From assembly GCA_017466005.1 (NCBI GenBank), contig JAFTUZ010000033.1:1-6898 (forward strand): a DNA stretch of 6,898 nt. The letters are read 5' to 3'. The notes beneath the pieces were generated by a model. It was not told the origin of the DNA. It saw nothing but the letters and a program-made list of their open reading frames with translations, and made no database searches. The position numbers were made by a program, and so were the translations under genes. Each line of letters starts with the position of its first letter. The first letter of the stretch is position 1. Below, in pieces: positions 1 to 2,764 of the stretch. This DNA comes from Clostridia bacterium. GTDB taxonomy: Bacteria > Bacillota_A > Clostridia > Christensenellales > UBA1242.

Positions 1-288
1 ACCTGTTACTGCTGTTCCGGTAAACCATGTTGCACCATCTGCTCCCGCAGCACCTGGCAAACCTTGTTCACCTTGTATTCCTTGTTCACCTTGTGGACCA
101 GCAGGACCAGTTGCCCCGGTATCTCCTTTAGGGCCTGCTTCGCCACAACCTACTAGCATTCCTGTACAACCTAAAAGTACTCCCATACTCATTACGGTTG
201 TAAACAAGGTTTTTCTTAAACCCTTTTTCTTAATTTTTTCTAGTTTGTTTTCTCTTGTTTCTAGTGTTATTTTATTTTTATTAAACAT
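1..288 (-). CDS. Collagen-like surface lipoprotein, N-terminal part (runs off left edge)
   Basis: This reading frame starts at the ATG at 288-286 and stays open to base 1, giving 96 codons with no stop, so the gene is partial. An AGGGAGGG ribosome binding site sits four bases upstream (300-293). The product has a long lysine-rich N-terminal region (residues 1-27), a short hydrophobic stretch and a lipobox ending LVGC, with the lipidated cysteine probably Cys48; a second possible lipobox, LLGC, ends at Cys41. From Gly49 there are 13 uninterrupted Gly-X-Y triplets (such as GPK, GDT, GPA, GEQ) up to residue 87, then WFTGTAVTG, where the non-collagen part begins. Bacterial collagen-like lipoproteins are anchored to the outer face of the membrane and project a triple-helical stalk; the ligand is unknown. 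The promoter region is the inverted-repeat segment at 306-490, which may make expression phase-variable. Family assignment is firm, function is not. Confidence 0.88.
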
Positions 289-308
289 TTTTCCCTCCCT
301 ATTACAAA

Positions 309-339
309 ACACACATTTAACTAATTGATAGATGTGTGT
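309..339 (+). repeat. Left inverted-repeat arm of the candidate switch
   Basis: The arm is itself a near-palindrome centred on base 324. The outer eight bases are ACACACAT and ATGTGTGT, a perfect match, and 12 of 15 positions pair overall. The non-symmetric positions lie mostly in the middle (320-328). Two inverted half-sites around a short asymmetric core is how tyrosine-recombinase crossover sites are built. The inner 21 bases (319-339) are identical in inverted orientation to 457-477. Confidence 0.8.
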
Positions 340-352
340 AATTAATAATAAA

Positions 353-381
353 AAAATAGTATTTATAAAAAAAATTGTAAA
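353..381 (-). promoter_or_regulatory. Weaker minus-strand promoter-like pair
   Basis: TTTACA (381-376) and TATTTT (358-353) on the minus strand are 17 bases apart and point at the lipoprotein gene; TACTAT at 361-356 is a better -10 hexamer but only 14 bases from the -35. It is a poorer match than the rightward promoter at 408-436. It could give low basal transcription of the lipoprotein, or be chance in an A/T tract. Confidence 0.25.
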
Positions 382-401
382 AAATTTAAAATTTATGTCA
401 T

Positions 402-434
402 TTTTATTTGTTAAATATTGTTTTATTTGTTAAA
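402..434 (+). repeat. 14-bp direct repeat inside the switch
   Basis: TTTTATTTGTTAAA occurs at 402-415 and again at 421-434, a period of 19 bases. The first copy contains the proposed -35 hexamer and the second ends in the proposed -10 region. It may be a regulator site repeated on nearly the same DNA face, or a local duplication in AT-rich DNA. Confidence 0.5.
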
Positions 435-436
435 AT
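408..436 (+). promoter_or_regulatory. Sigma-A-like promoter inside the invertible segment, facing right
   Basis: TTGTTA (408-413) and TAAAAT (431-436) are separated by 17 bases, the optimal spacing, with a start expected near 443. In the sequenced orientation it fires rightwards, away from the lipoprotein gene and into the right arm. If the segment were inverted, the same promoter would map to about 388-360 on the minus strand and give a leader of about 65 bases in front of the lipoprotein start codon. AT-rich DNA yields chance matches, so confidence is moderate. Confidence 0.5.
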
Positions 437-456
437 GTTAATATTACAACATTAAA

Positions 457-487
457 ACACACATCTATCAATTAGTTAGACGTATGT
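457..487 (-). repeat. Right inverted-repeat arm of the candidate switch
   Basis: This is the inverted copy of 309-339, identical over the inner 21 bases and differing at three positions in the outer part (479, 481 and 484). It is also internally near-palindromic about base 472, with 12 of 15 positions pairing. The differences are confined to the half away from the enclosed segment, so the parts nearest the spacer and the crossover core are exactly conserved. Confidence 0.8.
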
Positions 488-542
488 TTTTTTATTATTA
501 TAAATTACTAGATTTATATATAATAATTTGCAATTTTATATA

Positions 543-570
543 AAAAACAAGGTATGTTAACCTTGTTTTT
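543..570. terminator. Bidirectional intrinsic terminator between switch and TraX gene
   Basis: AAAAACAAGGT (543-553) pairs perfectly with ACCTTGTTTTT (560-570), an 11-bp stem with a six-base loop. On the plus strand the stem runs into TTTTTATTTTA; on the minus strand it runs into TTTTTTATAT. It would stop rightward transcripts from the switch before the TraX gene, and leftward transcripts before they enter the switch. Because it lies in the TraX leader it could also act as an attenuator. Confidence 0.6.
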
Positions 571-608: not shown

Positions 609-1331
609 ATGGAAAAAGTTGAAAATATAAAATGGGGGCTTAACAGAAATATATTAAAGTATATAGCAGTTATTGCTATGCTTTTAGACCATATTGCTTT
701 AATGTTAATTCCTGCCTATACGGCTTTGTGGGTTGTTTTACGAGTTATTGGCCGACTAACCGCCCCTATTATGTGTTATTTTTTAGCACAAGGATTTTTT
801 TACACATCTAACAAATTTAAGTATGGTTTAAGGCTGTTTATATTTGCATTAATTTCACAATTTGCCTATACTTTTGCATTTTTTAATAGTTTTTTTGTTT
901 TTGATTTTAATTTTATTTTTACTTTGTTTTTATGTTTTTTAATGCTTGGTGCATATACTAAAATTTTAAACCCTTTTATTAAATGGGCTTGTGTTATTTT
1001 AATTATTTTACTAACTTATCCTTGTGATTGGGGGCTTTACGCACCGCTTTTGGTTTTAATGTTTTATATATTAAAAGATTATAAACAGCAACAAATAATG
1101 GCATTTGTTTTAATTACACTTTTATTTGTGGTTTATCAAATTTTAACTAATGTTTTTAGCAATATTTCTATAATATTTCCTATTATTCAACTTGGGCTAC
1201 TTTTGTTTATTCCTGTTATTTATTTATACAACCAACAAAGTGGTAGTAAAAACCGTTTTCATAAATGGTTTTTTTATATTTTTTATCCGTTACATTTAAT
1301 TGTTTTAGGAATATTAAATTTTTTTATTTAA
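609..1331 (+). CDS. TraX family membrane protein
   Basis: This 240-residue, very hydrophobic protein has about eight membrane segments. Hallmarks of the TraX family are visible: LKYIAVIAMLLDH near residues 16-28, then R-x-x-GRL-x-x-PI with GFFYT (45-66), CDWGLYAPLLVLMFY (139-153) and the C-terminal KWFFYIFYPLHL (219-230). The founding member, TraX of the F plasmid, N-acetylates F pilin. Chromosomal homologues in Firmicutes are common, mostly uncharacterised, and are probably membrane acyl- or acetyl-transferases. No other conjugation gene is present, so a conjugation role is not implied. The ATG at 609 is used because it directly precedes the conserved N-terminus; its RBS is weak (GGTAAT, about ten bases upstream), suggesting low expression or dependence on the leader. 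It is convergent with the next gene and shares its terminator. Confidence 0.85.
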   Translation: MEKVENIKWGLNRNILKYIAVIAMLLDHIALMLIPAYTALWVVLRVIGRLTAPIMCYFLAQGFFYTSNKFKYGLRLFIFALISQFAYTFAFFNSFFVFDFNFIFTLFLCFLMLGAYTKILNPFIKWACVILIILLTYPCDWGLYAPLLVLMFYILKDYKQQQIMAFVLITLLFVVYQILTNVFSNISIIFPIIQLGLLLFIPVIYLYNQQSGSKNRFHKWFFYIFYPLHLIVLGILNFFI

Positions 1332-1903: not shown

Positions 1904-1934
1904 CAAAATTTAAAGCCCAAATTTAATTTAATGC

Positions 1935-2037
1935 AAAAGTGGGGAAAGTTTGCACGCCTTATGGCGTAAAGCAAAACGCATTTTGCTTTTTGCTTGCCAC
2001 GCACCTTTGGTGCGTGGAGCAAACTTTCCCCACCTTT
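1935..2037. repeat. Cloverleaf-like structured element (outer stem closing three hairpins)
   Basis: GTGGGGAAAGTTTGC (1939-1953) pairs perfectly with 2019-2033, extending by three A-T pairs outwards after one mismatch. Inside are three perfect hairpins in a row: ACGCC/GGCGT (1954-1958 with 1963-1967), AAAGCAAAA/TTTTGCTTT (1968-1976 with 1981-1989) and CCACGCACC/GGTGCGTGG (1997-2005 with 2009-2017). Every arm is fully complementary, so both strands fold equally well. It is clearly GC-richer than its surroundings, starts to fold right after the end of the DedA gene, and holds no credible gene. It is probably a mobile palindromic (REP- or MITE-like) repeat that also ends the exporter operon transcript, or a structured RNA. 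It lacks tRNA sequence features. Confidence 0.7.
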
Positions 2038-2041
2038 AAAA

Positions 2042-2764
2042 CTACTCTTGCTCGTAATCTTGCTGAATATATTGTTGCACACTTATAGACTTATTATACT
2101 TTTTAATTTTGCTTCTAAACACAAGCCAAGCAATAATTTCTACAACAAGTGCAGCACCCCACGCAACAAGTGTTAAAATTCCACCGCCAGAAATTATTCC
2201 AAAGAATACTAATGTGGTTATAAGCCCTATTGTTCTACCAACAAAGTTAAATATTATAAAGTACCAAAAATTAAATTTAACCGAACCACATACAATACAC
2301 AAAATATCATCTGGGAACACTGGGAATAAAACTGTTAAAAAGTAAATAAACTTACCTTTTTTGTTAATAAAACTTGCCCATTTATCGTACTCTTGTTCCG
2401 AACCAGCACACCATTTAACGGCAATTTTACCCCATTTTCTACCAATGCCATATGCAATAATAGCACCTAGCATATATGCCGAAATTGCCACACAAACCAA
2501 AGTTGTGTAAGTTGTCATTTCTTGTGGCAATATTGTAAACACCGCCAAAATTATAACATAAGCAGGTATTGGAATAAGCACTTGCACAAACAACAGCACC
2601 CAAACAACTACCCACGTCCAGTTGCCAGCATTTATAACTAAATCTTTAAGCCAATTAGTAACAGCATCAAACGAAAAGATAAGTTCAAACACAAACATTA
2701 AAAATGTGCAAAGCAGTGCAACTTCTAACAGTTTTTTACACTGATGCATTGTTTCTATTTTCAT
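2042..2764 (-). CDS. DedA/TVP38-type (VTT domain) membrane protein
   Basis: This 240-residue integral membrane protein has a VTT/SNARE-associated domain at about residues 55-185. Visible family features are the re-entrant PIPAYVI segment (65-71), GAIIAYGIGRKWG (100-112), the FLTVLFPVFPDD motif with a following G (142-160), and the GR pair at 176-177. Members are membrane proteins linked to lipid scrambling, undecaprenyl-phosphate recycling and membrane homeostasis; this one looks closer to the TVP38/TMEM64 branch, where substrates are mostly unproven. The C-terminus (218-240) is a polar, Gln-rich cytoplasmic tail. The start has AAGGA seven to eight bases upstream and lies 15 bp after ABC subunit B, so the gene should be translated from the same transcript and is probably the last gene of the operon. 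Confidence 0.82.
   Translation of the reverse strand: MKIETMHQCKKLLEVALLCTFLMFVFELIFSFDAVTNWLKDLVINAGNWTWVVVWVLLFVQVLIPIPAYVIILAVFTILPQEMTTYTTLVCVAISAYMLGAIIAYGIGRKWGKIAVKWCAGSEQEYDKWASFINKKGKFIYFLTVLFPVFPDDILCIVCGSVKFNFWYFIIFNFVGRTIGLITTLVFFGIISGGGILTLVAWGAALVVEIIAWLVFRSKIKKYNKSISVQQYIQQDYEQE

What the first reader, a model, noticed from the sequence alone, without database searches (positions are those of the whole stretch)
306..490. Candidate invertible promoter switch in front of a collagen-like lipoprotein gene
Seen: 21-bp perfect inverted repeats (319-339 and 457-477), extending to 31 bp with three mismatches, enclose 117 bp of promoter-like AT-rich DNA next to the RBS of a surface lipoprotein. 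Known: C. difficile and Bacteroides phase-variable surface genes use this layout. Inference: the segment flips and makes the lipoprotein ON in some cells and OFF in others. A phase-variable collagen-like lipoprotein would be an uncommon target.
Basis: partly seen in the sequence, partly recalled or inferred. Interest (0 to 1): 0.85.

Follow-up and report, generated by a model that had tools for sequence, protein, structure and literature searches.

The report
Likely flip switch for surface lipoprotein
In an uncultured bacterium, probably a small-genome relative of gut Clostridia, a short AT-rich stretch between matching inverted repeats sits just in front of a surface lipoprotein gene and looks like a DNA segment that flips to switch the gene on or off, but no flipped copy could be looked for here.

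Summary
None of 2000 local or 200 whole-window shuffles gives such a repeat; 554 kb of relatives' DNA hold one comparable case, an array of parS-like palindromes. Each 31-bp arm is two inverted half-sites around an identical, non-palindromic centre, the layout of a tyrosine-recombinase crossover site. A terminator-like hairpin (543-570) lies between segment and divergent TraX-like gene, unusual between divergent genes in relatives (3 of 45). Best reading: a site-specific-recombinase switch (inverton) controlling this lipoprotein. Weak points: promoter calls do not separate the two orientations, no recombinase gene is in the window, the host genome is not held, and no relative searched carries the arms. 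The protein belongs to a family of collagen-stalk lipoproteins; 7 of 10 longer relatives end in a GDSL/SGNH hydrolase. New member of a known kind; inversion itself remains unproven.

The parts
309..339 (-). Left arm: 31-bp site; inner half ACACACATCTA, centre TCAATTAGT, outer half ACACACATTTA (outer half read from outside inwards)
   Evidence: 10 of 11 half-site match, equalled in 15 of 5000 shuffles of the arm
457..487 (+). Right arm: 31-bp site; inner half ACACACATCTA, same centre, outer half ACATACGTCTA (read from outside inwards)
   Evidence: 9 of 11 half-site match, equalled in 29 of 5000 shuffles
340..456 (.). Enclosed segment, 117 bp, 91.5% A+T; candidate invertible DNA
443..471 (-). 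Promoter-like site towards the lipoprotein as assembled: TTGATA (in the right arm), 17 bp, TGtTGTAAT (in the segment); inversion would break it
   Evidence: score 16.3 against a mononucleotide-shuffle 95th percentile of 16.0; weak
408..436 (+). Promoter-like site away from the lipoprotein as assembled: TTGTTA, 17 bp, TGtTAAAAT; inversion would point it at the gene
   Evidence: score 15.5, within shuffle range
533..560 (-). Promoter-like site outside the repeats, towards the lipoprotein (basis of the leader-switch rival)
   Evidence: score 14.7, within shuffle range
543..570 (+). Terminator-like hairpin facing the TraX-like gene, 11 pairs, 3 of them G-C
   Evidence: plus strand only; -12.0 kcal/mol; a looser rule also accepts the minus strand
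1..288 (-). N-terminal 96 residues of the lipoprotein (signal peptide, lipobox, collagen-like stalk); the gene continues beyond the window
293..300 (-). Ribosome-binding site AGGGAGGG, outside the repeats
609..1331 (+). Divergent TraX-family membrane protein (PF05857), behind the hairpin
   Evidence: (E 1.9e-27)

Best explanation
A site-specific recombinase, most likely of the tyrosine type and not encoded in the window, recombines the two 31-bp arms and flips the 117-bp segment. Orientation decides whether a promoter faces the lipoprotein gene; the ribosome-binding site and start codon lie outside and never change. In the other orientation transcription runs towards the hairpin at 543-570 and mostly ends before the TraX-like gene. 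The result would be an ON/OFF mixture of cells for one member of a surface-lipoprotein family. Shown: repeats, arm anatomy, hairpin, gene, protein family. Inferred: recombination, the enzyme, which orientation is ON, phase variation.
For: 22-bp perfect inverted repeat beyond chance and rare in relatives: in 400 kb (20 stretches of four genomes) the only pairs of 19 bp or more are three pairs of one parS-like palindrome; in 154 kb of ten other loci the longest is 15 bp. Arms agree better inverted (28 of 31) than direct (at best 23) and share the oriented centre TCAATTAGT, as strand exchange between inverted sites requires (recalled); half-site symmetry in each arm. Similarity ends at the inner edge. 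Terminator-like hairpins stand in 3 of 45 divergent gaps of relatives, against 16 of 24 convergent and 30 of 100 co-directional ones. Two of three relatives' genes of this family (L040, L063) have a TTGACA/TATAAA promoter with its -10 box 45-46 nt before the start codon and no repeats upstream; in the window a repeat arm takes that place, so the promoter should lie in or beyond the segment (inference). Sizes resemble known Clostridia switches: 21-bp repeats around 195 bp (cwpV, PMC2784873) and 154 bp (flgB, PMC5386303).
Against: No second orientation seen: no reads, no own genome. No recombinase in the window, although in most characterized systems it lies next to the switch (PMC5903667, passage); DNA beyond the lipoprotein side is not in the window. 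No arm match in 297 relatives at up to 3 mismatches, and the 22-mer is absent from genome contigs (exact search), so no comparative inversion could be found. Promoter-like sites point both ways with similar scores, near or within shuffle range, and one lies outside the repeats. Homologous genes in the nearest relatives do without such a segment (0 of 3).
Confidence: 0.64

Rival explanations
1. Leader switch like C. difficile cwpV or flgB: the segment flips, but the promoter lies outside (about 560-533) and orientation acts on the transcript after initiation.
For: Promoter-like TTAACA-16-TAAAAT at 560-533; the segment would then be 5' leader, as in PMC2784873 and PMC5386303.
Against: No terminator-like hairpin inside the segment on either strand, and none arises on inversion in silico; the candidate promoter overlaps the hairpin 543-570; at 91.5% A+T the segment has little to fold. 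A Rho- or RNA-stability effect was not tested.
Confidence: 0.13
2. Small non-autonomous transposon (MITE-like): terminal inverted repeats around AT-rich filler, inserted before the gene, not flipping.
For: Size of about 185 bp, terminal repeats, AT-rich filler; TATTA at 300-304 and 493-497 could be a target duplication.
Against: A shared 5-mer between such AT-rich flanks is expected by chance (0.85); the best-conserved part of the arms is the inner, not the outer end; no arm copy in 297 relatives or, as exact 22-mer, in genome contigs. The own genome could not be tested.
Confidence: 0.1
3. Two copies of a palindromic operator (looping repressor) framing the promoter region, without recombination.
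For: Each arm is a near-palindrome (12 and 11 of 15 pairs); parS-like palindromes also show up as inverted repeats, so the pattern alone can mislead.
Against: The non-palindromic centre is identical and inverted between the arms, which a repressor does not need; nor does it need a 22-bp perfect block.
Confidence: 0.08
4. Fossil switch or chance repeat with no present function.
For: Not found in the relatives searched; no enzyme known here.
Against: The inner 22 bp are perfect, which neutral decay would erode; chance is unlikely by shuffles.
Confidence: 0.05

Closest known systems
Clostridioides difficile cwpV and flgB switches (RecV, tyrosine recombinase)
   Same: 21-bp imperfect inverted repeats, 195- or 154-bp segment, upstream of surface-structure genes (PMC2784873 abstract and passages; PMC5386303 abstract and passages)
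   Different: Those segments hold no promoter and act after initiation; the flgB arm printed in PMC5386303 shows no resemblance by eye; here no inversion shown
Invertible promoters and invertons of gut bacteria (fimS type, Bacteroidales promoters, PhaseFinder calls)
   Same: Short inverted repeats around a promoter-sized segment near surface genes; Clostridia-like genomes of one defined community have a median of 3 invertons (PMC11892184, passages)
   Different: No read evidence, no assigned invertase, promoter not established
Ureaplasma mba locus inversion (XerC)
   Same: Small-genome bacterium (recalled), surface antigen, short inverted repeats, tyrosine recombinase (PMC3599477 abstract; PMC3047005 title and start of abstract)
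   Different: Ureaplasma inversions make chimeric or alternating antigen genes; here only upstream DNA would flip
C. difficile Cdi5
   Same: Invertible site next to a membrane O-acetyltransferase and an SGNH hydrolase-like gene (PMC5903667, passage)
   Different: There one operon; here a TraX-like gene and a lipoprotein of a hydrolase-bearing family diverge, with a hairpin between

Membership tests
Invertible promoter (inverton) | Inverted-repeat pair enclosing a short intergenic segment upstream of a gene | tested here: met
Invertible promoter (inverton) | Both orientations present in a population or among strains | not testable with these tools
   no reads; own genome not held; no relative with the arms found
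Invertible promoter (inverton) | Promoter in the segment whose direction changes with inversion | tested here: inconclusive
   sites point both ways, scores 16.3 and 15.5 against a shuffle median of 14.0 and 95% of 16.0; 7 sites against 4.5 +/- 2.4
Invertible promoter (inverton) | A cognate recombinase in the genome | not testable with these tools
   none in the window; own genome not held; 57 of 60 relatives have PF00589 proteins and 1 of 5 has PF00239 proteins, which says nothing on this species
Tyrosine-recombinase crossover site | Two inverted half-sites around an identical core in both arms (definition recalled) | tested here: met
   10 of 11 and 9 of 11 half-site matches, equalled in 15 and 29 of 5000 arm shuffles; centre TCAATTAGT in both. 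Sequence only; binding not tested
cwpV-type leader switch | Terminator formed in one orientation only, promoter outside | tested here: not met
   the only terminator-like hairpin in 240-640 is 543-570, outside the repeats, in both orientations; the outside promoter is a weak candidate
MITE-like element | Multiple dispersed copies with target duplications | tested here: inconclusive
   no arm copy in 297 relatives or as exact 22-mer in genome contigs; own genome not held; TATTA flanks not significant

The most novel reading that the evidence does not exclude
Inversion builds or breaks the promoter itself: the -35 box (TTGATA) lies in the recombination arms and the extended -10 box (TGtTGTAAT) at one end of the segment, so only one orientation joins them in front of the lipoprotein, while the other joins them facing the terminator before the TraX-like acyltransferase gene. 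It would be the switch of one member of a shared-signal-peptide, collagen-stalk, SGNH-hydrolase lipoprotein family in a genome of about 1 Mb, giving an uncultured reduced-genome gut lineage a mollicute-like surface variation system.
Probability: 0.2. Interest if true: 0.62.

Novelty: new member of a known kind. Interest (0 to 1): 0.42.

Why it matters
If the segment flips, a bacterium of what seems to be a reduced-genome, uncultured gut lineage spends scarce DNA on phase-varying a surface lipoprotein, which points to immune, phage or neighbour pressure on it. It is directly testable by re-mapping existing metagenome reads, and the arm sequence gives a tag for finding its enzyme and any sister switches before other members of this lipoprotein family.

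Tried and rejected
Led nowhere: exact 22-mer arm in genome contigs and 18-mer in viral contigs, no hit; phage collection, no match; a loosened arm pattern in three genomes gave 13 matches against 9 for the reversed control (3/6, 4/1 and 6/2 per genome), all with 2 or 3 mismatches and each on a different contig, so no pair; a DNA search with the 195-bp element in 60 relatives found matches in 48 genomes, in the rows listed mostly in the AT-rich filler; at least five listed rows begin inside the left-arm stretch (66-76% identity), none spans both arms, and the list was cut; viral contigs for P0165 and TraX, no relative; Rfam, none at gathering for the window or at E up to 1 for 290-620.

Rejected: that relatives share the switch. 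Of the three nearest homologous genes none has listed repeats upstream; two more distant members in L091 have only 13-bp AT-rich pairs near their starts, and 13-bp pairs are common there (14 in 154 kb); the G080 and G121 loci show at most 11 bp. Rejected: that the pattern alone proves a switch, since parS-like palindromes give the same signal. Rejected: naming an ON orientation, since promoter scores do not separate the two. Rejected: 'collagen-like lipoprotein' as a full description.

Not in print, as far as searched: I saw no paper on DNA inversion before a collagen-like or SGNH-type lipoprotein, nor in UBA1242 or Onthoplasma, in the listings (15 of 22 shown; 15 of 16; 10 of 14; 1 of 1; 8 of 20; 2 of 2; 6 of 42; 8 of 135); only open-licence PMC papers are held.

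Full report
Check of the observation. The repeats are there and slightly longer than stated: 22 bp perfect at 318-339 and 457-478, 28 of 31 for 309-339 / 457-487, 34 of 39 for 301-339 / 457-495. The enclosed 117 bp are 91.5% A+T. Dinucleotide shuffles never reach 22 bp: 0 of 2000 for 240-640 (largest 19), 0 of 200 for the window (largest 18). As a control from real DNA, 400 kb from four relatives (20 stretches) hold three pairs of 19-20 bp, all one palindrome TGTTTCACGTGAAACA (parS-like, name recalled), and otherwise nothing above 16 bp at spacings of about 40-700 bp; 154 kb of ten other loci hold nothing above 15 bp. In all loci held at the time, window included (558 kb, pairs with at least two G or C), there are four other repeats of 19 bp or more: three with spacers of 6-15 bp, and one pair in a Clostridium celatum locus (19 bp, spacer 158).

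Where it lies. The 31-bp arm starts 20 bp from the ATG (288, minus strand) of a lipoprotein gene that runs off the window after 96 residues. On the other side a terminator-like hairpin (543-570, 11 pairs) precedes a divergent TraX-family gene at 609 (PF05857, E 1.9e-27). The hairpin meets the stricter rule on the plus strand only, facing TraX; a looser rule accepts both strands; it folds at -12.0 and -11.9 kcal/mol. The rest is a protein without Pfam match, a VTT protein, two ABC exporters and a MarR regulator; no recombinase.

Which organism. No own genome is held. The closest genome found is a Clostridia MAG (L001/G001): its ABC protein is 80% identical over the best segment, and its contig matches the window from the VTT gene into the MarR gene at 74% and has a counterpart of the 1347-1850 gene after VTT; it ends before any TraX. 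The first-listed relatives of G001 are of 0.8-1.4 Mb, and G002, the genome of a Candidatus Onthoplasma locus, is among the relatives searched. NCBI places Onthoplasma in Christensenellales; PMC12306168 (passages) lists it under family UBA1242 with reduced genomes. That the window belongs there is inference.

The protein. A search of 5.8 billion proteins with the first 110 residues of the L089 homologue scored 7995 candidates and listed the best 120 of 3080. Among the 240 proteins held, ten longer ones share 49-55 of the first 55 residues with the window, two of them all 55. They are 568-964 residues long, at least one marked partial. Seven of the ten have a C-terminal GDSL-type hydrolase domain above a Pfam cut-off (PF13472 or PF16255), one (P0126) an SASA esterase domain, two neither. 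Of six homologues scanned from G001 and G006, five match GDSL lipase (one, L091:3055-5829, just below the cut-off) and two LRR_5. P0128 and P0129 show the same longest-contig length, which suggests paralogues on one contig. So the gene is one of a family with a conserved signal peptide, a short variable collagen-like stalk and a variable outer part. What follows residue 96 in the window's own gene is not seen.

Arm anatomy. Each arm is two inverted 11-bp half-sites 9 bp apart: inner halves ACACACATCTA in both; outer halves ACACACATTTA (left) and ACATACGTCTA (right). Arm shuffles do as well in 15 and 29 of 5000; the arms resemble each other, so these are not independent. The centre TCAATTAGT is identical, inverted between the arms and not palindromic; arms match 28 of 31 inverted and at best 23 in direct orientation. 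This is what a tyrosine recombinase (Cre, Flp, Xer type; recalled) needs for inversion. Each arm also folds as RNA on the strand reading into the segment (-12.9 and -15.2 kcal/mol), which follows from the dyad and is no separate evidence.

Promoters. Towards the lipoprotein, the best site as assembled has its -35 (TTGATA) in the right arm and an extended -10 (TGtTGTAAT) in the segment (471-443, score 16.3); the best site facing away is 408-436 (15.5). Inversion swaps their directions. The weights are my own, from recalled sigma-A preferences; mononucleotide shuffles give a median of 14.0 and a 95th percentile of 16.0, so neither is strong; a third site (560-533, 14.7) lies outside the repeats. 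I therefore do not name an ON orientation.

Relatives. Genes L040 and L063 of G001 have a TTGACA/TATAAA promoter with its -10 box 45-46 nt before the start codon (score 17.5), L039 of G006 a weaker one (14.3); none of the three has listed repeats upstream (AT-only pairs under 13 bp were not listed). No arm match in 297 relatives at up to 3 mismatches, none for the exact 22-mer in genome contigs. Searches for the signal peptide in 397 relatives and in 309 family members found the same 4 genomes, at 45-58% identity. So the switch is not a conserved feature of the lineage as sampled, which removes the comparative proof. Arms need not be conserved: in C. difficile all but two of seven sites have unrelated arms (PMC5903667, passage).

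The terminator as a clue. In 29 loci of relatives, crude ORF calls (100 codons or more, gaps of 120-700 bp) give terminator-like hairpins on either strand in 3 of 45 divergent, 16 of 24 convergent and 30 of 100 co-directional gaps (L093 was left out of that list, and the window's own gap was not counted because the lipoprotein piece is too short). A terminator between divergent starts has no gene to end; blocking transcription that leaves the segment towards TraX would explain it. This is suggestive only.

Known systems. C. difficile cwpV: imperfect 21-bp repeats, 195 bp, promoter outside, proposed terminator in the OFF transcript (PMC2784873, abstract and passages). flgB: 154 bp, 21-bp repeats, no promoter in the segment (PMC5386303, abstract and passages). 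Cdi5 lies by an O-acetyltransferase and an SGNH hydrolase-like gene (PMC5903667, passage). The same paper says that in most characterized systems the recombinase lies next to the switch, which is not so here within the window. Clostridia-like genomes of a defined gut community have a median of 3 invertons each, one Clostridia group being tied to tyrosine recombinases (PMC11892184, passages and section 8). Ureaplasma XerC inverts a surface-antigen locus (PMC3599477, abstract). Surface-gene switching by inversion is thus known; a further case in this lineage is new in place, not in kind.

Verdict. Observation confirmed; interpretation plausible and best supported among the rivals (0.64), inversion not shown. 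The most novel reading not excluded is a promoter whose -35 sits in the recombination arms and which is assembled by inversion.

Noticed in passing
window 1930-2042: Intergenic nested inverted repeat: a long outer stem (GTGGGGAAAGTTTGC...) encloses three inner hairpins; RNA fold -64.5 kcal/mol on the minus strand, z -9.4. No full copy in 40 relatives (one 22-nt match), no Rfam match at gathering. Unexplained; possibly a species-specific dispersed element or structured RNA.
   Followed up: partly
window 543-570: Terminator-like hairpin between two divergent genes, unusual in relatives (3 of 45 divergent gaps).
   Followed up: yes
window 1-288 and proteins P0165, P0150, P0131, P0143, P0126, P0128, P0190, P0228, P0129, P0135: Lipoprotein family with a nearly constant signal peptide (49-55 of 55 residues) but variable stalk and outer part; may vary by recombination among copies.
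   Followed up: partly
L005 3852-3870 and 4029-4047 (Clostridium celatum DSM 1785): 19-bp perfect inverted repeat with a 158-bp spacer, some 480 bp before the matched ABC gene; candidate switch, context not examined.
   Followed up: no
L120 17821-19192: Four parS-like palindromes (TGTTTCACGTGAAACA), useful as a control for palindromes posing as inverted repeats.
   Followed up: no
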